From positions 1 through 64,000 of the forward strand of contig CANQON010000008.1 in assembly GCA_947625505.1 (NCBI GenBank): a stretch of 64,000 nucleotides of DNA, written 5' to 3'. The notes beneath the pieces are model-generated. The model did no database searches. It had not been told where the DNA came from and saw nothing but the letters and a program-made list of their open reading frames with translations. Positions within the stretch are counted from its first letter, which is position 1; every line of letters begins with the position of its first letter. Positions 25,758 through 64,000 of the stretch are shown here, in pieces. The stretch is from an uncultured Bacilli bacterium. Lineage in GTDB: Bacteria > Bacillota_I > Bacilli_A > RF39 > UBA660. The translations under genes were made by a program, and so were the position numbers.

Positions 25758-28700
25758 CTATTTTTGAATCACAGTTTCTTGATTACCAATTAAACTCTTT
25801 AAATAAGTTATTTGAGTTTTTAATTCATCATCACTTAAATTAAACTTTTTAGCTCTTTTTTTGTTTCGATCATCAAGTAAATCAAATTTATATTGTTCGT
25901 TATTAATAACCTGAATAAACGCATTAACTTGTTTTCGTTGCATATCCTTATCTGTTAGATTCATTAAATATGTTATGGTATCACGTAATAAGGCACGCAC
26001 ATCATCAGTCATAAATAAAGTATCTTTATCTATTCCTTGAATAAAGTCGCATCCACAAATATTAGACTCATACTTATCAATAATTAAAGCTAATTCATTC
26101 ATATCAAATGTATTACGATATTGCATCATCATATTCTTTAACTTACTAGCTTCGTTATTCGCAATCTTAACGCGATCAATATAATATATTTTTAATTCAA
26201 CACCATGCTTTTTAAAATCCTCATAAGCTTTAATACTATTTGCCTTAATAGATTCATCCATATCCTCATATATGACAATAGCATCTGGTTGAATACAGTC
26301 AAATCTAGGATCGATAGAGTGATTTCTTCTTTCAAAATCAAACTCATTATGTGTATGTCTTGTAAATCTAGGTATATTATCTAGTGTTGTATAGAAAGGA
26401 TCATAACTAGAAACAATATTATATCCTCTATTAGAAGTTGCTAAATCATATGGTGAATAAGTAGCAATTGATTGATTATTAATTCTCGTAAAAGCAAACA
26501 TAACACCTTTATCAGTAACAGCTGCTGTACCATAACTAGAATTAGTAATATAACTAGTACATATACCATGATTCTCCGTACTAGGATTATTATTCCATGA
26601 CAAGAAATAATCATCATCAATTATTTGCATAGATCCATAAGCACAAGTGCTATGAACAAAAATGCCAAAATCATCAGTTAATTCTATCATAGGTACTGAT
26701 TGCATATTACCATCTAAATCTTTAAATTCCTTAGTTATAGGTGCACCATTTTGTTTATCATGATAATCATGAACTAAAGAATCAAAATAAGCACTTTGCA
26801 TAATAGACTCAATAGTATAAAGATCTGCTTTATCATAATATATTGTTGTCTTATTATATAATTCTTTTAAAGTAACTACATCGGATATACTTAATATCTT
26901 CGTTAATAAAGAAATAAATTGAAGTGGAACATCGTTTTTAGCGTATTTTTGTACCTTATCATAATTAATAACATATTTCTTATTAAAAGCCACAATATCT
27001 TTTAAGGACATAGATAAATATTTATAACAATAAATATTCTTCATATCATCTATATTGGTACTTTTAGCGAACTCTTCATCACATTTTTTAATTCGTTCTT
27101 GTGAGAAATTTTCTACCGAAGAGCCATACTCTTTAAATGCATCTTCTCTTTGATAGTTATATAAAATGTAATTTAAGATATCGCGAATATCTGCATGTGC
27201 AAAATCATATCCCTTTAATTTATTATTTTTAGATAAGAATTCAATAACCGATGATATTTCTAAATCATAAACAAATTCCGTTGTTTTTTGTGATTTTATA
27301 TAATCAGATATTCTAACTAATAAATTTAAAAACTCAGGATGTATCTTAGATAACTCTACTAAATTTCTTTGAACAAATTGATACTTAGATGTCTTAATTA
27401 AGAAATGATCATTCATTTCTATTATTTGATCATTAAATAGTATTGGATTAATTGTAGATAACACAAAGGGATTTTCATCCAATAGCATTTCAAAAGTATC
27501 TATTTTTTTCTGTGATAATAAAGCATCATGACATAAACATAAAAATTTTAATTTTTCTTTTAAGGTTATGCCTTTAATTTTATCTTTAAACTTACTATAT
27601 AATTGATTACTAGCTAATAAGCTATCAACTTTACTTTCAATAAAGTTACGATCTTCATCATGTAATAAATAAATAAAATTTGATATATTTTCTGCAATAT
27701 CATTATCAATTAAGCAACTGATATCTTTTTTCAAATATTCCATTAACTTATTTTTAATTGTTTGATTAAAATAATCTTTACTAATAAAAAATAATGTTTT
27801 AAAATCAACATTTCCTATAATATATTGTACTTGTTCTTGATTATACTTAGATAAGTTTAATCTAAATTTAAACCATTCATTTTTAATACTTGAATCAACA
27901 TATAATCCCAACAATTTATCAATGGCTGATTTACTAGCTTCATCATTATGAGCTTTTAAAGATTCGAAAAAGAATACTTCTAAAGTACTCAGATTAGTAA
28001 TACGACTAATCATATCATCTATTTCACTACTTGAAAGACACTCTAAATAAATTTTAATAATCTTCTCATTATCAAACCCAAAATAATCATTATTCCAAAA
28101 TTCAATAAAATCATTTTTTTTAGCTTTTAAAGTTTCATAAACAATTTCAGGGCTCTTTTCATATAAATTCTTAATTAAATTTTTAAATGTTTCTACACTC
28201 ATCTTACTAAGTAATGTCCTCAAATCATCATATGAATAATAGCTAATTAATTTAGCCTTCATCATATCAGGGTGAAGAAAAACATATTCTAAAATATAAT
28301 TACGAATTTTTTCATTAATGTTGATAATATTACTGTCAGCAAATAAGATTAACTGACTATTATCAAAATATGGTAATATCTCATCGATACGATCTAATAA
28401 GGCATCACTTTCAGTAAAGCTTGAAAAAGGGCTTAACTCTCTAGTACGAAAGAAATCTGGATGTTCTTTTAAATAGTCAACCATAAAGTTAAATAGTTTT
28501 TCATCACTTAATAAATGTTCAAAGAAGCGTTTACTATCAATATAATTAATGAAAAACGTTTGCTCTTTCTTTGATAAATAATTAAAGAAAAAATCAGTAC
28601 TTAAATATAACTTATAATTAGGATTCTGAAGCATAAATTCTTTACACTTTTGCATATATATCTTAAGAAAGAAAGGATCATAATCATCCTCAATTTCATT

Positions 28701-29897
28701 TAAAAATACATGTGAAAAAACAGAAGCAGATGTAAAAACTATCTTGCTAGCCAAAATTTGTCTTTCATCATCACTTAATAAACGTGTAAAAGACTTTAAA
28801 TTTAAGAAACTTTTTAAATCTATTTCTTCCATATTTAGTAAACGATTTTTTAATTCTACTAAATATTGGGGATTTTTACTTTTCAAATAAATTTGATAAA
28901 TAAAATCTATTGGAAAAAAATTAGAATTCATAACAAATAATTGTTCTAATAAATCATTATCCCAATCTTTATATTCAAGGATTAATCTTGATTTCTTATT
29001 GTCTATTAAATAGTTAATTAACTTTTTTTGCATCTCTTTATTTAGTAATTTTAAATAATCACCAAATTGTCTTTCTCTACCTATCTCAATATATTCAATA
29101 CATTTTTGATAAAAAACACTTTGAGGTATTATTTCTGCAATATCTTTTAGATCAAAGCTATTAATATTATCTATATTATCAATTATTTGAAACATTTCTA
29201 AAGCTTCTAAAGCAAGCTCCTTAGGTAATTTACCAATCAATTTAACTTGTTTATCTAAAGGCCATCTAGTTATATCATCTTTAAAAGCTCCCCATAATTT
29301 ATAAGCAACTTTTTCATCTAGGTTAAAGAAATAACCTTTACTTAATTCATTATAAATAATTTCTCTAAACTTAGCATTTTGCAAGCAAAGGTCTATCAAC
29401 TCTTCTGATAATATATTTAATGTATAAATAGATAAACCTGTTACATCTAAAGAGTCAAAAAATTTATCCTCCATTTGTTTTTTTAGTATGCCATCAAAGC
29501 ACTCAAAAAAGCCTTTAAAGTTTCGGTAAAAAAGTCTAAATAAAACATCATTTTTTAATAGTTCTTCTGTCATTTCTGATGTATTTAAAAAAGCTTTATA
29601 ATCTATTTCATCTTGCGTTCTTTCAAAAAATATTTGAACGTAAATACTACGATACTCTCCTATCGAATGATTAAATTTATCAATACATGCTTTTACTACC
29701 TCAGGTAAGAGATATACCTCTTTAAAACTAGGATCACCAAAGAAAAATTGAATATTATCTAAATAGACTTGTTTTTGTTTATCTCTATCATCAGATGCTA
29801 ATAGTTCATTAAAAAATGTCCTATTTTCTTCTTTAGTATCTTCATTTTCAACGACACGTCTAAATGCTTCTCTTACAATATCTATTGATAGTTCCAT
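25758..29897 (-). CDS. Giant uncharacterised protein, 1379 aa
   Basis: Single uninterrupted ORF; helical N-terminal about 1000 aa and a compositionally distinct C-terminal region. Confidence 0.85.
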   Translation of the reverse strand: MELSIDIVREAFRRVVENEDTKEENRTFFNELLASDDRDKQKQVYLDNIQFFFGDPSFKEVYLLPEVVKACIDKFNHSIGEYRSIYVQIFFERTQDEIDYKAFLNTSEMTEELLKNDVLFRLFYRNFKGFFECFDGILKKQMEDKFFDSLDVTGLSIYTLNILSEELIDLCLQNAKFREIIYNELSKGYFFNLDEKVAYKLWGAFKDDITRWPLDKQVKLIGKLPKELALEALEMFQIIDNIDNINSFDLKDIAEIIPQSVFYQKCIEYIEIGRERQFGDYLKLLNKEMQKKLINYLIDNKKSRLILEYKDWDNDLLEQLFVMNSNFFPIDFIYQIYLKSKNPQYLVELKNRLLNMEEIDLKSFLNLKSFTRLLSDDERQILASKIVFTSASVFSHVFLNEIEDDYDPFFLKIYMQKCKEFMLQNPNYKLYLSTDFFFNYLSKKEQTFFINYIDSKRFFEHLLSDEKLFNFMVDYLKEHPDFFRTRELSPFSSFTESDALLDRIDEILPYFDNSQLILFADSNIININEKIRNYILEYVFLHPDMMKAKLISYYSYDDLRTLLSKMSVETFKNLIKNLYEKSPEIVYETLKAKKNDFIEFWNNDYFGFDNEKIIKIYLECLSSSEIDDMISRITNLSTLEVFFFESLKAHNDEASKSAIDKLLGLYVDSSIKNEWFKFRLNLSKYNQEQVQYIIGNVDFKTLFFISKDYFNQTIKNKLMEYLKKDISCLIDNDIAENISNFIYLLHDEDRNFIESKVDSLLASNQLYSKFKDKIKGITLKEKLKFLCLCHDALLSQKKIDTFEMLLDENPFVLSTINPILFNDQIIEMNDHFLIKTSKYQFVQRNLVELSKIHPEFLNLLVRISDYIKSQKTTEFVYDLEISSVIEFLSKNNKLKGYDFAHADIRDILNYILYNYQREDAFKEYGSSVENFSQERIKKCDEEFAKSTNIDDMKNIYCYKYLSMSLKDIVAFNKKYVINYDKVQKYAKNDVPLQFISLLTKILSISDVVTLKELYNKTTIYYDKADLYTIESIMQSAYFDSLVHDYHDKQNGAPITKEFKDLDGNMQSVPMIELTDDFGIFVHSTCAYGSMQIIDDDYFLSWNNNPSTENHGICTSYITNSSYGTAAVTDKGVMFAFTRINNQSIATYSPYDLATSNRGYNIVSSYDPFYTTLDNIPRFTRHTHNEFDFERRNHSIDPRFDCIQPDAIVIYEDMDESIKANSIKAYEDFKKHGVELKIYYIDRVKIANNEASKLKNMMMQYRNTFDMNELALIIDKYESNICGCDFIQGIDKDTLFMTDDVRALLRDTITYLMNLTDKDMQRKQVNAFIQVINNEQYKFDLLDDRNKKRAKKFNLSDDELKTQITYLKSLIGNQETVIQK

Positions 29898-55284: not shown

Positions 55285-57528
55285 TTATTTACATTTTTGC
55301 TTTTTTAATCTGCTTGCTAAAATAATCATAATAGTAAAAGAAATAATAGATAAACTAAAATATTTCATAATATTATCGCCTGTGTTTGGTAATACATTCT
55401 CTTCAATCAAAGTATTATTTACCTCAACTATTGATAATGTTCCTTTAGTTATCTTTCCTTCGTTATTAACATAGTTTACCTTATATCCAGAATTATCACT
55501 TTCCACTACAGTATAATCTAATCCTTCAGGTAAAAGTTTAGCACTAATAGTTTCGTTTGCTTTTATTTTAAATGTTGCAACACCGTCTTCAAAATTCATA
55601 TCACCATATTGGCCACTAATTTTTTCACTAAGAGTTACAGTTATAGTAAATTCACGATTTAAATTGGCATTCTTACCTGTAATTTTCTTTGTAACTGATA
55701 ATCCTCCAGTGGTTTCAACACGACCAATATTAAGAATACCATTACTCATTATAGCACCTGCTCCATATATGCCATTTGAACTATTTTCTGATATCATAGT
55801 TGTTGCTTCTTTTTTAGCTTTTTCTATATCATCATTGCTTAGATTTGATACAAGTGTTACAAATTTTTTAGAAGTATCAATTTGTCCTCCTGCAATATAA
55901 TTTCCATCTAAATCTGTCCAATGATATAATCCATCACCTAAAGATAGATAAGACACATATAATGAAGGGTGACGATTTTGAAAAATTGATGTTTCAGTAA
56001 CTAATAATATATCAGCCCCACCATTAGCTCTATTTCCATAGATAGCACTACTTTCAAGTCCATTTATAAATACTTTAGATTCAGGGCAAACACCAATTCC
56101 TCCAGCAAAGATACCTTTATCACTATCTCTACCAGCAATAAACATTTCTTGACTAATAGAGTTATTTGTTACAATAACATTTTTTAGATTTAATGTACAT
56201 CCTTCACCATTATAGATTGCTCCTCCTGCAAATTCTGTATCACTAACAAGAGATGTATCTATATCAGTCCCTGTATTTTTATTGTTAGTAATATTTCCAC
56301 CTGAGATAGTAGCTTGGGAAGGTTTATCATTTTGGTAAGCTATATATATAGCTCCTGCATTAGCTGTTGCTGTATTATTTGTAATAGTACCATTATCCAT
56401 GTTTAATATTGTATTTTCAGTGATATAAATAGCTCCCCCACGAACAGCTTTATTATTCTTTAATACGATATTATTTTTTAAATTAACGATAGAATCATTA
56501 TAAGCAAGTACAGCTCCTCCACGGTAATTTGCAGAGTTTTTAATACCTGTTGTTACTTCGTTACCACTGATTTCGCCTCCAAAGGCATTTAATACTGATT
56601 TGCTAAGATGAAAAGCTCCACCATCACCAGTAGCTTTATTGTTAGAAACAAATCCACCATTCATGTTAATTGTACTATCATTATACGCACATATAGACCC
56701 ACCTTGACCATTAGATGTATTACCTGTAATTAAAGTATTACCTGCTATTTCTAAAGTTGAATGATCAAGTGTAATAGCTCCTCCAATATCTGATGCATTA
56801 TTGTTTTTAATAGTTGCACTGCCACTTAATTTAATAATAGAATTTGAAGCCCAAATAGCTCCTCCGCTTGCTGAAGTATTACCGCTAATTTCTCCACCTG
56901 TCATAGTGAAATTTGTATTATTTTCTAATCCAATAGCACCACTAGGGTTACCACTATTATTTTTGATTAATCCACCTGTCATTGTTATAGTGGCATTACT
57001 AGCATGAATAGCTCCACCCATCCAAGTAGATTGATTATTTTGGATAATTGCTCCATCTGCAATAGTAAGTTTACTACCATCAACTTGGAAGAAACCTAAT
57101 GATAAAGCATTAGCTGTATCATCTAATGTGATATTTTGAACAGTTAAATCACCATCACCATAAATGATAAATCCCCAGTCTAAAGTTTCTTTCCATGTTA
57201 ATGTATAATTTTGACCTTCTGTTGATGCCAAAGTAATCTTTTTAGTTATTTCAAGAGTACTATTTAAATCCATATTACTAAGTAAATAAATAATTTCTCC
57301 ATCTTGAGCCATATTTATAGCTGTAGTTAACGAATTGTATGGCTTCAATCGTGTACCATCAGCGTCCGATGTTCCAGTATTAGATACATATATTGTGTTT
57401 ACTTCATTATTAATCTTTTTTACGCTAGCATTTAGCTTATAAGAATTAAAAGTTTTTGGTGCAACTGAAAAAGTTAAAAGCAATGCTAATAATAAAACTA
57501 AAGTCATTATTCTTGATTTTATTTTCAT
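55285..57528 (-). CDS. LPxTG-anchored surface protein with parallel beta-helix (GGAI...NN) repeats and one CnaB-like domain
   Basis: Signal peptide; repeated GGAI/ISGN motifs; C-terminal LPNTGD + TM + KKQKCK. Confidence 0.88.
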   Translation of the reverse strand: MKIKSRIMTLVLLLALLLTFSVAPKTFNSYKLNASVKKINNEVNTIYVSNTGTSDADGTRLKPYNSLTTAINMAQDGEIIYLLSNMDLNSTLEITKKITLASTEGQNYTLTWKETLDWGFIIYGDGDLTVQNITLDDTANALSLGFFQVDGSKLTIADGAIIQNNQSTWMGGAIHASNATITMTGGLIKNNSGNPSGAIGLENNTNFTMTGGEISGNTSASGGAIWASNSIIKLSGSATIKNNNASDIGGAITLDHSTLEIAGNTLITGNTSNGQGGSICAYNDSTINMNGGFVSNNKATGDGGAFHLSKSVLNAFGGEISGNEVTTGIKNSANYRGGAVLAYNDSIVNLKNNIVLKNNKAVRGGAIYITENTILNMDNGTITNNTATANAGAIYIAYQNDKPSQATISGGNITNNKNTGTDIDTSLVSDTEFAGGAIYNGEGCTLNLKNVIVTNNSISQEMFIAGRDSDKGIFAGGIGVCPESKVFINGLESSAIYGNRANGGADILLVTETSIFQNRHPSLYVSYLSLGDGLYHWTDLDGNYIAGGQIDTSKKFVTLVSNLSNDDIEKAKKEATTMISENSSNGIYGAGAIMSNGILNIGRVETTGGLSVTKKITGKNANLNREFTITVTLSEKISGQYGDMNFEDGVATFKIKANETISAKLLPEGLDYTVVESDNSGYKVNYVNNEGKITKGTLSIVEVNNTLIEENVLPNTGDNIMKYFSLSIISFTIMIILASRLKKQKCK

Positions 57529-57541
57529 ATTATTTCCCTTT

Positions 57542-60500
57542 CTAATTTAATCTTTTTTCTAAAACTATTCCAATGAAAGAAGAAATAATAGTTAAACTAA
57601 ATATTATAATAAACTTCATTATTGAATCATTAGTCTCAGGTATATTAATATTTCTTTCATTTGATACAACAGTTTCTATATTATCTTCTACTATTCCTTT
57701 ATTATCTATATAAACTGTATGATAATTATCTTGGTTGGCCTCTAGTTCTATAACTTCATAACTTGTACCATATGGTATATCTTTAATTATTATTTGTTGA
57801 TTACCCTTTAAAGAGACCTCACATTCATAAGAATTATCATCTTTTAAAGTGAAATTAAGAATTCCATCTTGCTCAGAATCGGTATAAGCATAAGAAGTGC
57901 TAAAAGGAACATCAGAGTTTGGTGTTAATATTACTTTAAAATGCCATTCCCTATTTGATTCTGTATTAGATCCTTTTAACTCCTTTTTAATCGTTAAATT
58001 ATGCGTTGAATATTTATTATTATAGAAATTAACTTCATGTATTTTATTTTCTAATATACCTTCAGCATTGTTTTCAATAATTGTAATGTAATTATCTTGA
58101 TTGGCTTCTATTTCTTCTACCTTATAGTGTGTTCCTTCTGGTAAATCTTTTAATGTTATTTCTTCACCATGATGTAGAATTATATTGCTTTCATACTTAT
58201 TACCAACTTTATTTAATTTAATTTTACCCGTTGTTTTACTAGTTTCATCAGTAATAGTTGATAATTCATATACATATTCACTATCTAATTGTTTTTCTTT
58301 AGGAGATTCAAATGTTATTTTAAAATGCCATTCCTTATCTTTCTCTCCTAAATTTCCATTAACAAATTTTCTTATTACTAAATCATGTTTTGATAACTTA
58401 ATATTCTTATATGAAACATTTGTATTTTTTGATAAAATGTCTCTTTCATTACCTGAACTATTAGTTATATAACCATCTTTATTAGCTTCTTTTTCTTGAA
58501 TACTATAATTTGTATTTTCAGGTAAACCTTTTATATTAATTGTTTGTCCATGTTTTAATGTTATAGAGCCTTTACTACTTCCATCTGGTTGTTTTACAAA
58601 TTCAATTAATCCAGTTTTATCACCATCATATAGATATTCATTTAATAAAGCTATATGATCATCAGGTGTTAATGTAATCTCAAAGGTCCATTCTTTTTCT
58701 TTATCTCCTGCTCCACCTAATACTTCTTTATTAATTGTTAAAGAATATTTTGCTGGTTTTTTATTAACGAATTTTACCATAAAGGATGCATCATTAACTA
58801 ATACACCTCTACTTGTTCCTTCTGTCCAAGTAATATAACCATCCTCATTAGCTTCTTTTTCTATTACCTCATATTTTGTTCCTTCTGGTAATTCACTTAT
58901 CGTTAATGATTGACCATGCTTTAGCTTTATATTAGCTTCACTTGTCCCATCAGAATTGTGCTTTAACTCAACTCTTAAATCACTAACTGGCGCTATAGTT
59001 GATTCGGTATTTCCACCAATTATAGGATAACTATCTAATAACTTAACACCATCTTCTGGCGTTAATTTAACTACAAAGTTCCATTCTTTAGATTTATCTG
59101 CATCATTACCTCTTACTTCTTTATAAATAGTAAGACTATGTTGTGATTGCTTAATATTAGTGAAAATAATACTATCTTTATTTTCGTTAACATTTAATGT
59201 TCCTTCATTAGGACCATCTACTCTTGTTGTATAGCCATCTTGATTAGCCTCTAACTCTTCAACATTATAATGTGTTCCTTCTGGTAAATCTTTAATAGTT
59301 ATAGTTTCTCCATGTTTTAGCGTTACTTCTCCAACATAAATGCCATTACCATTATCAACAAAAGATATTTTACCAATCTTTGAGCCTACATAAGAATAAT
59401 CTTTATCTAAGATAACATATTCTAAAGGTTCTAAAGTAATTTTAAATATCCATTCTTTTTCTTTATCGCCCCAAGCACCCTCTACCATCTTAGCTATAGT
59501 AATATCATGCTTACTTAACTTAGAATTAGTAAAGCGAATTTTTTCATTTTCTTTTGTTAAGACACCTTCACTATTAGTTGTTTGCATTGTGTAATAATCA
59601 TTTTTATTAGCCTCTTGTTCAATTACTTTGTATTGTGTCCTTTCTGGAATTCCTTCTATTGTGACACTTTCGCCATGTTTTAAAGTAATTTCTCCTTCAT
59701 AACTACCATCATGATTATCTGTTAAAACTAGTTCTCCATCGCTATGAGGATCAACACCATTAGCTACATGTCCACCAACATAATGGTAACTCTTATCAAA
59801 TATAACATCTTCATCAGGAATTAAAACAATTTTAAAATGCCAATCTTTACTCTTGTCTCCTGCCCCACCTGTTACAATTTTTTCAAGCGTTAAATCATGT
59901 CTTGAATATTTTATATTAGTAAATTTAGCGTTGACACTATCTTTTCCATTAGTTGTTCCTTCAGCATTTTCTTTTAATGTTATATAACCATTTTTATCAG
60001 CATCTTGCTCAACAATTTCATATTTTGTATCTTCTAAAATATCTTTAATTGTTATTGATTCATTATGCTTTAATGTAATTGTTCCAGTATAACTACCATC
60101 ATGGTTATCCATGAACTCAATACTTCCTGTTTTACTACCTACAAAAGAGTAACTTTGTGCGAATGGACTTCCTTCTTTAGGAGTTAATTTTATTTCAAAT
60201 GTCCATTCTTTTTCTTTATCACCTAAAGCACCTAATACTTCTTTTGATAAAGTGAAATCACTCTTTAAATAATTAGAATTTTCAAACTCAACAAAAGCTT
60301 CATCATCTTTTAAAACACCTTTTGCGTTTTTACTTGTTGTTACATAGTCATTTTCATTTGCTTCTTTTTCAATTACTTCGTAATTAGTTCCATAAGGAAG
60401 ATTTTTAATAGTAACTTTTTGACCATGCTTTAATGATATATTAGCTTTATAATTACCATCTTCATCTTTAGTAATATCAATATAATCAATATTAGGAGAT

Positions 60501-63500
60501 TCAACACCATCTATACTTGAGCTAACTACAGAATATTTATTTGCTAAAGATTCAACCTCTTCATTATTAAATATTAATTCAAAATTCCATGCCTTATTAG
60601 TATCTCCATTAGATCCAACAACCTTTTTACTAAGTGTTAAATCTACAGGAGCAAGGAATTTATTGAAATAATCTATTTCATCTGGATAGTTAGCATTAAC
60701 ATCTCCAACTACTTTTCTACCACTAATCGTACCTTTATCTTTTTCTTTTAAATTTATATGATCAAAGAAATATCCTTCTTGTTGATCAGTTGTTGTAATA
60801 TTTTCTTCTATCTCATAAGATTGACCAGATTTTAAACCTGTGAACATTAGTCCTTCATTGCTTTTTAATTTGAATTGCGCTACATTAGGAGTTTGATTAT
60901 CCCAATCATTTTGATCCCAATCATCAGGTTTTATTTCTGGCTTATTATCATCACTATATCCAAAATATACTTTTTGAGTTAAGAAACTAGAATTTGTTGC
61001 ATATGGAGATGATAATTCACTAGAACCAAACAAATAAGAATTTAGATGTGAGATTACAAATTCATCTAAAGATGCATATCCTTCTGCACTTCCACTCCAT
61101 TTATTATTTTCAACCTCAGATACAGGTATTAAATATGCTTTCTTTACCCAGAAATCAATTGAGCCTAAGGTATGATCATCATCATATTTTTTATATTTAT
61201 TTAATTCTGTCTTCAAATTACTATCTATTGTATCAGGATTCTCAACATATGTTGTAATACCTGATTGAGTTAATTCCACACCATCTTCATTATCAGGTGC
61301 TGAATATAATCTAAAGACATTATCATCAATAGATCTTTTAGCCTTATTTATTCCAATATAGATATAATAACTTCTATTATTCTTACGATAAACAGTTAAG
61401 TTGTTATTAGAGTTTTGTAATAATCCTCTATTATCTGTTAATACATCAATCGTACTAATACGTAATTGCCATTCATTTGAATAAGGATTTTTATACATTT
61501 TTAAAACTTCAAAATCCCCTTCACGATTGTCCATTTTCATGGAAAAACTAAACTCTTTATTTTCATCTACTTTTTGTTTACCATATTCACTAGTTTCTAC
61601 TTCTTTAGTAACAAATAGTAATGAATCGTTAACTTCAATTCGACCATTATTTCCTAAATAAGAATTAATAATAACATCGCTATCATTTGAACTACTTCCA
61701 GATGTTTGACTAATTGTAGGCAAATAAGAATTATATGCTGTTCCAGTTTTATTAGAAGATTTAGCTCTTAAACTTTGAGCCATATCACCAACACGTAATC
61801 CCCCTGGACGTGTTGCAATTACCCAATTACCATCTTCAGGTTTTGCCACAGTTGGCTCAAATTGAATCCACGAATCACTATCTTCATTATACCAAGCTAA
61901 ATAGTTACCAGCTTCAATACTACCACCAGCAATACCAGAGCCAAACTCTTTTCCCAACCTTGATACAGCAACATGAACAGGGTCTTTTTTATCTGGTAGA
62001 TAATAATCTAATATTACATAATACCATTTGTTTGAATCCAATGTAGAAGCATCAGTTATTTTTTGATGTGAACTTATAAAAGCATTTAATGATGCATCAT
62101 CTAATAATGGTACATCTTTATAAGTTCCATTTTCTTCTAAATCAGAATCATCTTCATTTAAATTATATAATGGTAAAGGATTTTGATACATATAAAATCT
62201 ATTCTCACTATTTGGCGAGAATGATAATAATGCATCTCCTCTTGTACGTTCCTCACTTGTATCTGTTACATAATCTGTATAAGTTGTATTACTATAATAA
62301 TTTGAGTAGAAATATACAATATCTCCTACTTTATTTTTCTTTAAATATTCAGGTGAGATTTTACCTATATCTATATCTAATCCATCATCTGTAAAAATAG
62401 AATCCTGTAATCCAACGCCATAGAACAATCTAAATGGTGTAGTGTTTATTTTATTATCTAAATTCGTACTATAAGATGAAACACGTCCATCACTACCTAT
62501 TTCAATATTTGCTACTTCAATAGGCAAAGCACTAACAGGTATGTTAACATAAAGAGCTTGATCAAAGCCTAAATCAATAGCAGCATCATTATCTTCTGTC
62601 TCAAAATTTTCAGTATCCTCTACCCATATACGAATATCACTTAATTTATAATTAACATTGGTATCTTTGTAGCAAGGATTATGTATATCATCGTTTCTGT
62701 TGTTATCTAGAAAACGATATAATGTATAAATTGTTTTCTTTTGTTGATCTGTCATTTTTCCTTCTTCTAGAAGGTTAGGGACATACTTTCTAACAATATC
62801 ACTACTTACATAATATGTATCGCCATTTTCCCAACTACCACTCTCTCCTAAGAAATTGCCATCTTTATCATACCAACCCATTTCAAAAGGAAGAGATAAA
62901 TCATTACTTTTATGATCTTCTCCACGATGTGTAGCATTAAAATTATAATCATAAATTGCTGTTTTAGTAATACCATAAACCTTACCAAATAGTAGTAATC
63001 CCATATCATAAGTATTGCCATCTATTGTGATAGAATTGCTTTTAATTTCTGTATATTGTCCTAATGGATCCATATATGTCATTGAGTCTTCTATACCAAT
63101 GTCATTAATGCCACTAATAGGTTTAAAAGCTGTTGACACGATATCTTTAACAATTTGATCAAATGTTTCAGATATAGAATCTGATACATCATTTCCTGTG
63201 GTCGTATAATAAGCTTTAGTAACATAATTAAAATCAATATCACTATTGCTTAATCCATATGGATTAACATCTTTATCTTCTGGATTTAGATTTTCAAAAG
63301 TCATTGGCGTTCTACCATTTATTAAATAAGCATTATTATGACTATAACCAATAGGTACTGTAGCCTTATATGTTTGATCATTAATAGTTGCCGATCCATC
63401 GTTCATGTCTGCCCAAAGACCTTTTGCTTCATTATATGACACATATGTGTTGATTTTATTTCTATAAGTAAATGAACTACTATTATTTTTAAACTCCCCA

Positions 63501-64000
63501 TATGCTTTTATTGCGTCATTTATTCCTAATATAACTTGAGCGCCAAATGAATAAGGTTCATAAACTAAATCGTTTTCTGTTAAATTATCTAAATCAGAAC
63601 TTTCTTTTATATATCCTTTTTCTTGTAGCCATTTAAGATTAAAATAGTTATTAGGATCCATAATTACAAATCCAGTACTTATATTGTAGCTAGCTGTTCC
63701 ACTAAACCATTCACCATCATTTGGTAGTTTAATATCTTCTGGATTTGACATATCTACTGAAATAGTAAAGAATTTACACTCTTCATGAAATTTCTTTTCA
63801 ACAGCAGATTTCATGTAAGAACTATTTAAAAGAGTTGTTAATATAATAGAAGCATGTGTAGATCTTACTTCATCGGCAAAAACTTTTAATTTTTCTTCTC
63901 CCAATACACCAGGATTATTACCATCTGTACTTAATTTACCATCACCATAACCAACTTGTTCTAATGTTGGAGTACCATTTTTGTCAATTAAATCGATAAA
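57542..64000 (-). CDS. Giant surface protein, partial (5' end beyond window): VWA-like N-terminal part, eight CnaB-like repeats, degenerate sorting signal
   Basis: Frame remains open from 63904 (a TTG chosen by the ORF caller) to 64000: FIDLIDKNGTPTLEQVGYGDGKLSTDGNNPGVL-GEEKLKVF; C-terminal IPETND + TM + EKRLN. Confidence 0.85.
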   Translation of the reverse strand, partial: FIDLIDKNGTPTLEQVGYGDGKLSTDGNNPGVLGEEKLKVFADEVRSTHASIILTTLLNSSYMKSAVEKKFHEECKFFTISVDMSNPEDIKLPNDGEWFSGTASYNISTGFVIMDPNNYFNLKWLQEKGYIKESSDLDNLTENDLVYEPYSFGAQVILGINDAIKAYGEFKNNSSSFTYRNKINTYVSYNEAKGLWADMNDGSATINDQTYKATVPIGYSHNNAYLINGRTPMTFENLNPEDKDVNPYGLSNSDIDFNYVTKAYYTTTGNDVSDSISETFDQIVKDIVSTAFKPISGINDIGIEDSMTYMDPLGQYTEIKSNSITIDGNTYDMGLLLFGKVYGITKTAIYDYNFNATHRGEDHKSNDLSLPFEMGWYDKDGNFLGESGSWENGDTYYVSSDIVRKYVPNLLEEGKMTDQQKKTIYTLYRFLDNNRNDDIHNPCYKDTNVNYKLSDIRIWVEDTENFETEDNDAAIDLGFDQALYVNIPVSALPIEVANIEIGSDGRVSSYSTNLDNKINTTPFRLFYGVGLQDSIFTDDGLDIDIGKISPEYLKKNKVGDIVYFYSNYYSNTTYTDYVTDTSEERTRGDALLSFSPNSENRFYMYQNPLPLYNLNEDDSDLEENGTYKDVPLLDDASLNAFISSHQKITDASTLDSNKWYYVILDYYLPDKKDPVHVAVSRLGKEFGSGIAGGSIEAGNYLAWYNEDSDSWIQFEPTVAKPEDGNWVIATRPGGLRVGDMAQSLRAKSSNKTGTAYNSYLPTISQTSGSSSNDSDVIINSYLGNNGRIEVNDSLLFVTKEVETSEYGKQKVDENKEFSFSMKMDNREGDFEVLKMYKNPYSNEWQLRISTIDVLTDNRGLLQNSNNNLTVYRKNNRSYYIYIGINKAKRSIDDNVFRLYSAPDNEDGVELTQSGITTYVENPDTIDSNLKTELNKYKKYDDDHTLGSIDFWVKKAYLIPVSEVENNKWSGSAEGYASLDEFVISHLNSYLFGSSELSSPYATNSSFLTQKVYFGYSDDNKPEIKPDDWDQNDWDNQTPNVAQFKLKSNEGLMFTGLKSGQSYEIEENITTTDQQEGYFFDHINLKEKDKGTISGRKVVGDVNANYPDEIDYFNKFLAPVDLTLSKKVVGSNGDTNKAWNFELIFNNEEVESLANKYSVVSSSIDGVESPNIDYIDITKDEDGNYKANISLKHGQKVTIKNLPYGTNYEVIEKEANENDYVTTSKNAKGVLKDDEAFVEFENSNYLKSDFTLSKEVLGALGDKEKEWTFEIKLTPKEGSPFAQSYSFVGSKTGSIEFMDNHDGSYTGTITLKHNESITIKDILEDTKYEIVEQDADKNGYITLKENAEGTTNGKDSVNAKFTNIKYSRHDLTLEKIVTGGAGDKSKDWHFKIVLIPDEDVIFDKSYHYVGGHVANGVDPHSDGELVLTDNHDGSYEGEITLKHGESVTIEGIPERTQYKVIEQEANKNDYYTMQTTNSEGVLTKENEKIRFTNSKLSKHDITIAKMVEGAWGDKEKEWIFKITLEPLEYVILDKDYSYVGSKIGKISFVDNGNGIYVGEVTLKHGETITIKDLPEGTHYNVEELEANQDGYTTRVDGPNEGTLNVNENKDSIIFTNIKQSQHSLTIYKEVRGNDADKSKEWNFVVKLTPEDGVKLLDSYPIIGGNTESTIAPVSDLRVELKHNSDGTSEANIKLKHGQSLTISELPEGTKYEVIEKEANEDGYITWTEGTSRGVLVNDASFMVKFVNKKPAKYSLTINKEVLGGAGDKEKEWTFEITLTPDDHIALLNEYLYDGDKTGLIEFVKQPDGSSKGSITLKHGQTINIKGLPENTNYSIQEKEANKDGYITNSSGNERDILSKNTNVSYKNIKLSKHDLVIRKFVNGNLGEKDKEWHFKITFESPKEKQLDSEYVYELSTITDETSKTTGKIKLNKVGNKYESNIILHHGEEITLKDLPEGTHYKVEEIEANQDNYITIIENNAEGILENKIHEVNFYNNKYSTHNLTIKKELKGSNTESNREWHFKVILTPNSDVPFSTSYAYTDSEQDGILNFTLKDDNSYECEVSLKGNQQIIIKDIPYGTSYEVIELEANQDNYHTVYIDNKGIVEDNIETVVSNERNINIPETNDSIMKFIIIFSLTIISSFIGIVLEKRLN
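57650..60655 (-). repeat. Eight tandem CnaB-like (DUF7601-type) domain repeats of about 120 aa
   Basis: Each repeat: (L/F)T(L/I)xK...EWxF...LKHGxxxTIxxLPxGTxYxVxExEANxDxY...FxN; 19-nt exact DNA identities between repeats 2, 4 and 6. Confidence 0.85.

What the first reader, a model, noticed from the sequence alone, without database searches (positions are those of the whole stretch)
57650..60655. Eight tandem CnaB-like repeats, each keeping an isopeptide-type Lys/Glu/Asn triad
Repeats start at roughly 60655, 60275, 59925, 59520, 59150, 58755, 58405 and 58010. Each has a Lys on the first strand (LTLSK, FTLSK, LTLEK, ITIAK, LTIYK, LTINK, LVIRK, LTIKK). Each has a Glu in Yx(V/I)xE (YEVIE, YEIVE, YKVIE, YNVEE, YEVIE, YSIQE, YKVEE, YEVIE). 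Each has an Asn on the last strand (FENSN, FTNIK, FTNSK, FTNIK, FVNKK, YKNIK, FYNNK, VSNER). In established CnaB/SpaA domains this Lys-Glu-Asn arrangement forms spontaneous intramolecular isopeptide bonds. The array could therefore form a covalently stiffened stalk of about 1000 residues. Bond formation itself is inference.
Basis: partly seen in the sequence, partly recalled or inferred. Interest (0 to 1): 0.72.

Follow-up and report, generated by a model that had tools for sequence, protein, structure and literature searches.

The report
Isopeptide-locked stalk of giant adhesin
The repeats form the rod of a very large wall-anchored surface protein from an uncultured gut bacterium, and every repeat keeps the three amino acids that in related, experimentally solved proteins weld the domain shut with a self-made covalent bond; it is a clear but ordinary example of a known kind of bacterial adhesin.

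Summary
All eight repeats, with all 24 triad residues as written, lie at 57653-60646 (- strand). They are Pfam DUF7601/DUF5979 domains (E 2e-186), not Pfam Cna_B, although the fold is CnaB-like. In 73 tandem pairs of relatives the only strictly invariant columns are one domain's triad (K7, E94, N126). AlphaFold2 gives a confident two-domain model (pLDDT 97.4). Its nearest solved structures are isopeptide pilins: PitA, Spy0128, PitB, Cpa. The Lys and Glu align exactly with the experimental Lys610 and Glu680 of Cpa (4BUG). A 2025 survey already lists DUF7601 as a predicted isopeptide domain and DUF5979 as a proven one.

I predict about ten welds from head to wall in one fibrillar adhesin. In six relatives the last repeat lost its Lys, and five also lost the Glu.

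Bond formation remains inference. Verdict: new member of a known kind, modest interest.

The parts
57542..64000 (-). Part of the giant adhesin gene inside the window (2152 codons and stop); the frame continues to the contig end at 65039, at least 2487 residues in all
63068..63070 (-). D657 of the head: candidate catalytic Asp of a split CnaA-like domain; its candidate Lys (K59) lies beyond the window end
   Evidence: invariant in 53 of 53 heads; D657 lies in one of the two search patterns, which biases its count; order as in RrgA/GBS104/Mfa5 (PMC7835359)
62300..62302 (-). N913 of the head: candidate bond Asn of the same split CnaA-like domain
   Evidence: invariant in 53 of 53 heads
60647..61627 (-). 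Ninth CnaB-like domain with a long insert, before the eight; K at 61604-61606, E at 60803-60805, N at 60662-60664
   Evidence: triad invariant in 14 sequences; AF2 pLDDT 90.5 together with repeat 1; partial DUF7601 hit at 60710-60925
60263..60646 (-). Repeat 1 (LTLSK / YEVIE / FENSN)
59900..60262 (-). Repeat 2 (FTLSK / YEIVE / FTNIK)
59510..59899 (-). Repeat 3 (LTLEK / YKVIE / FTNSK)
59141..59509 (-). Repeat 4 (ITIAK / YNVEE / FTNIK)
58748..59140 (-). Repeat 5 (LTIYK / YEVIE / FVNKK)
   Evidence: in the AF2 model, pLDDT 97.4
58388..58747 (-). Repeat 6 (LTINK / YSIQE / YKNIK)
   Evidence: in the AF2 model
58004..58387 (-). Repeat 7 (LVIRK / YKVEE / FYNNK)
57653..58003 (-). Repeat 8, wall-proximal (LTIKK / YEVIE / VSNER); keeps all three residues here
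57545..57643 (-). C-terminal sorting signal: IPETND, hydrophobic stretch, short charged tail
   Evidence: sequence; same layout in relatives

Best explanation
The eight repeats plus one upstream insert-bearing domain are the stalk of a single-chain, wall-anchored fibrillar adhesin of at least 2487 residues with a vWA (MIDAS) head. After secretion each stalk domain folds as a CnaB-like sandwich. In its hydrophobic core the conserved Glu promotes attack of the first-strand Lys on the last-strand Asn, giving a Lys-Asn isopeptide bond with loss of ammonia. The split domain that holds the vWA head probably makes an equivalent Lys-Asp-Asn bond (K59-D657-N913). A sortase joins the C-terminus to the wall. 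Under pull, force passes from first to last strand through the bonds, so the rod resists stretching and proteolysis while it carries the head outward to its ligand. Shown: domain identity, triad conservation, fold class, head and anchor sequences. Inferred: bond formation, sortase anchoring, mechanical role, adhesion and its ligand.
For: DUF7601/DUF5979 match, E 2e-186 and 5e-51. The triad columns are the only invariant ones in 73 tandem pairs. PDB profile hits are isopeptide pilins, with K and E on the experimental Lys610/Glu680 of Cpa (PMC12617251). AF2 pLDDT 97.4 with K, E and N on first strand, strand 89-94 and last strand; nearest folds PitA, Spy0128, PitB, Cpa. Ninth domain with invariant triad. 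Head MIDAS and K59-D657-N913 invariant in 53 of 53, as in RrgA/GBS104/Mfa5 (PMC7835359). Sorting signal and six sortases in the genome. Signal-peptide-like start in the paralog on C13.
Against: No side-chain distance and no mass could be measured. The signal peptide of this copy is off the contig. The sorting motif IPETND departs from LPXTG. Six relatives have a last repeat without the Lys, so the fold tolerates loss of the bond. No adhesion ligand is known.
Confidence: 0.88

Rival explanations
1. The protein is the tip subunit of a sortase-assembled pilus, like PitA or RrgA, rather than a free-standing fibrillar adhesin; the isopeptide-locked stalk then only spaces the head from a polymeric shaft.
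For: The nearest solved structure is the PI-2 tip pilin PitA; the genome has a pilus-like operon with sortases on contig C3.
Against: No backbone pilin or sortase lies beside it in the window, and none of the six sortases is on this contig. Nine stalk domains already give great length, and several such paralogs sit at unrelated chromosomal places.
Confidence: 0.12
2. The repeats are ordinary CnaB-like Ig domains in which the triad is a structural relic and no bond forms.
For: Bond formation is unproven here. Last repeats lacking Lys (and mostly Glu) are tolerated in six relatives.
Against: Lys, Glu and Asn kept as the only invariant columns at about 40% identity have no obvious packing reason. 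Where the Lys is gone the Glu usually goes too (171 both kept, 1 Glu lost, 3 Lys lost, 6 both lost; Fisher p 1e-8), though the tree fits a single origin, so this is weak.
Confidence: 0.06

Closest known systems
Pfam DUF7601 (PF24547), predicted isopeptide domain of the 2025 survey (PMC12617251)
   Same: All eight repeats score over its cut-off; same Lys/Glu/Asn order as its model B8QYD3 (Lys190, Glu263, Asn305).
   Different: Nothing essential; this is an eight-copy array in an uncultured Bacilli genome.
DUF5979 domain of Cpa/Spy0125 (4BUG; Lys610, Glu680, Asn715)
   Same: Repeats match the family and Lys and Glu align residue for residue; the bond is experimental there (PMC12617251 Table 1).
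   Different: Cpa is a pilus-presented adhesin with a thioester domain; here the head is vWA and the domain is repeated.
PitA, tip pilin of pilus islet 2, Streptococcus oralis (7W6B, 7VCR)
   Same: vWA protein with a CnaB-like stalk; top hit by fold and among the top hits by profile.
   Different: Shorter (782 resolved residues) and part of a pilus; here about nine stalk domains and no adjacent pilus genes.
RrgA / GBS104 / Mfa5 heads (PMC7835359)
   Same: vWA with MIDAS between a Lys and an Asp and Asn, in the same order.
   Different: No significant sequence match to their structures; the shared arrangement is inferred from order and conservation.
Mobiluncus mulieris giant adhesin (PMC10619420)
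   Same: Giant surface adhesin built of tandem cross-linked Ig-like domains.

Membership tests
DUF7601 / CnaB-like isopeptide domain | Sequence match over the curated cut-off | tested here: met
   Eight repeats at 75-94 bits, cut-off 27
DUF7601 / CnaB-like isopeptide domain | Lys on first strand, Glu in the penultimate sheet region, Asn on last strand | tested here: met
   Sequence, alignment, AF2 strands
DUF7601 / CnaB-like isopeptide domain | Transthyretin-like (CnaB) fold | tested here: met
   Foldseek hits PitA, Spy0128, PitB, Cpa, E 4.5e-15 to 1e-9
DUF7601 / CnaB-like isopeptide domain | Covalent Lys-Asn bond actually formed | not testable with these tools
   Needs mass spectrometry or a crystal structure; model coordinates not available
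Pfam Cna_B (PF05738) | Match to the Cna_B profile | tested here: not met
   The only Cna_B hit in this genome is on contig C3, not here
vWA fibrillar adhesin / RrgA-GBS104-type head | vWA with complete MIDAS | tested here: met
   D111, S113, S115, T259, D297 invariant in 53 of 53; Pfam VWA_2 26.1 bits, just below its cut-off of 27
vWA fibrillar adhesin / RrgA-GBS104-type head | Split CnaA-like domain around the vWA, with Lys-Asp-Asn | tested here: inconclusive
   K59, D657, N913 invariant in 53 of 53 and in the right order, but no structural model of the head and no sequence match to the solved heads
vWA fibrillar adhesin / RrgA-GBS104-type head | Signal peptide and wall sorting signal | tested here: inconclusive
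   IPETND, hydrophobic stretch and charged tail present; the N-terminus of this copy is beyond the contig end, paralog C13 has a signal-peptide-like start
Sortase-assembled pilus tip subunit | Encoded with a backbone pilin and a pilus-type sortase | tested here: not met
   None beside it in the window and no sortase on this contig

The most novel reading that the evidence does not exclude
In this adhesin family the stalk is covalently welded throughout except, in some relatives, for the wall-proximal repeat, where the Lys and usually the Glu have been given up. That repeat could act as the one extensible, force-yielding joint (a mechanical fuse) at the base of an otherwise inextensible rod.
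Probability: 0.1. Interest if true: 0.5.

Novelty: new member of a known kind. Interest (0 to 1): 0.3.

Why it matters
It is a clean, sequence-backed case of a long adhesin stalk in which every domain is predicted to be covalently cross-linked, in an uncultured gut lineage that carries several such paralogs per genome. The relatives whose last repeat has naturally lost the Lys and Glu give ready-made controls for asking what a missing bond does to a stalk. The principle and the domain family are already published.

Tried and rejected
Pfam Cna_B as the family: rejected, no hit here. The weak Ribosomal_L2_C, NifT and rplB hits on the repeats are below their cut-offs and rejected as chance. Matching the head to solved vWA adhesins by sequence led nowhere. 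A first iterated profile swelled with insertion columns and was dropped. A first head alignment was selected with a pattern that required the Lys, so it was redone without it. Measuring Lys-Asn distances failed for want of coordinates. Lys/Glu co-loss as strong proof of joint function: considered and marked down, since the tree fits one origin. Papers on the 'Lapin' genomes were not found.

Full report
WHAT IS THERE. The finding lies on the - strand in one open frame that the window cuts at 64000. The contig goes on to 65039, where the frame is still open; the longest ATG start gives 2487 residues. Residue numbers below count from the contig end (residue 1 = contig 65038-65036). They are 117-131 residues long and 33-47% identical to the fifth; 13 columns are invariant, the triad K7, E94, N126 among them.

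IS IT MORE THAN CHANCE. Yes. DUF7601 scores E 2e-186 and DUF5979 5e-51 over the protein, and each repeat scores 75-94 bits against a cut-off of 27. I collected related loci (49) and aligned 73 tandem pairs. The strictly invariant columns are exactly three: K7, E94 and N126 of the first domain. The second domain's equivalents are nearly invariant; exceptions are last repeats, discussed below.

WHAT THE DOMAIN IS. A profile of the eight repeats finds, at E up to 0.01, only pilins and pilus adhesins in the PDB: group A streptococcal T-antigens, PitA, Cpa, PitB/FctA and Spy0128, best E 2e-16. In the alignment to 4BUG (Cpa) the conserved Lys and Glu fall on chain positions 344 and 414. With the 266-residue offset set by Lys610, the Glu is residue 680, the catalytic Glu listed in PMC12617251 Table 1 (counted by hand; table). 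That paper lists DUF5979 as a proven and DUF7601 as a predicted isopeptide family (B8QYD3: Lys190, Glu263, Asn305).

STRUCTURE. AlphaFold2 of repeats 5-6 gives pLDDT 97.4 and pTM 0.87; K7 is in the first strand (2-10), E94 ends strand 89-94, and N126 is in the last strand (119-127). Foldseek puts PitA first (E 4.5e-15), then Spy0128, PitB and Cpa. TM-scores are modest (0.4-0.5), as is usual when two-domain rods with different hinge angles are compared. Coordinates are not released to the session, so the decisive side-chain distance is not measured.

A NINTH DOMAIN. Directly before repeat 1, at 60647-61627, lies a 327-residue domain with the same ends (LLFVTK, YEIEE, YFNKF) and a long insert. 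In 14 aligned sequences, some only 24-29% identical over the construct, its K8, E275 and N322 are invariant. The model (pLDDT 90.5, folded together with repeat 1) places them on the first strand, strand 270-276 and strand 316-324. The fold search returns the same pilins, though repeat 1 is part of that query and contributes to the match.

THE HEAD AND THE ANCHOR. Upstream, mostly beyond the window end, is a vWA domain. In 53 heads from this genome and from Bacilli, Clostridia and Actinomycetota relatives (median 33% identity) the MIDAS residues D111, S113, S115, T259 and D297 are invariant, and so are K59, D657 and N913. In RrgA, GBS104 and Mfa5 the vWA is inserted in a CnaA-like domain whose Lys lies before, and whose Asp and Asn lie after, the vWA (PMC7835359; PMC12617251 Table 1 for GBS104). 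The invariant residues here have that order, so a tenth bond of the Lys-Asp-Asn type is likely but not shown. D657 lies in one of the two search patterns, which biases its count; K59 and N913 do not. The C-terminus carries IPETND, a hydrophobic stretch and EKRLN. The genome has six sortases, none on this contig.

NATURAL LOSS. In six relatives (after removing near-copies) the last, wall-proximal repeat has lost the Lys (S, S, S, G, H or T in its place), and in five of them the Glu is V or I as well. Across 181 non-redundant repeats with both positions readable, 171 keep both, 1 lacks only the Glu, 3 lack only the Lys and 6 lack both (Fisher p 1e-8). The tree puts the six last-repeat losses in one group, so this is probably one event and only weak support for joint function. 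The window's own last repeat keeps all three residues.

RELATIVES AND HISTORY. The genome holds at least four more DUF7601 array proteins (contigs C13, C51, C3, C4), besides the single domain in the gene at 55285-57528. Repeats 2 to 8 of the window match the repeats of paralog C51 in the same order; repeat 6 is 72% identical to its C51 counterpart and repeat 3 is 66%, against at most 49% between neighbours within the array. The array therefore predates that duplication and has not been homogenised since. The domain is patchy: 24 of 193 genomes sampled in the order and 25 of 396 in the phylum sample. Forty of the 49 named related loci are from MAGs labelled 'Lapin' (French for rabbit), so the window may well come from a rabbit-gut bacterium of the Bacilli; that is inference from record titles.

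VERDICT. A well-supported new member of a known kind: a vWA fibrillar adhesin with a nine-domain CnaB-like stalk, predicted to be isopeptide-locked throughout. The bond itself is unproven.

Noticed in passing
55285-57528: A second surface-protein gene lies 13 bases downstream: Chlam_PMP-type repeats, one DUF7601 domain with its own triad, and an LPNTGD signal. In the closest relative L026 the giant gene is followed directly by the DHH gene, so this gene looks like a local insertion or loss.
   Followed up: partly
57626-57643 and the C-termini of the relatives: The sorting signals of this family depart from LPXTG and share xPxTxD (IPETND, IPDTLD, VPSTLD, IPNTLD, NPFTVD, NPHTLD, SPNTLD), while other surface proteins of the same genome keep LPXTG. 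A dedicated sortase is possible.
   Followed up: no
L026-L074: 40 of 49 loci with a related head come from MAGs labelled 'Lapin', in Bacilli, Clostridia, Eggerthellaceae and Atopobiaceae. This may point to spread of one adhesin family among different bacteria of one host's gut, but the search patterns came from this genome.
   Followed up: no
L028, L073: One contig (CANRKS010000004.1) carries at least five tandem genes for vWA heads of 1142-1268 residues that go straight into a sorting-like signal, without the repeat stalk.
   Followed up: no
25758-29897: A 1379-residue protein without any Pfam match, near the ribosomal-protein operon.
   Followed up: no
L003 (contig C3) 516-7670: A pilus-like operon elsewhere in the genome: three proteins with LPXTG-type signals, one of them with a Cna_B domain, and two sortases.
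   Followed up: no
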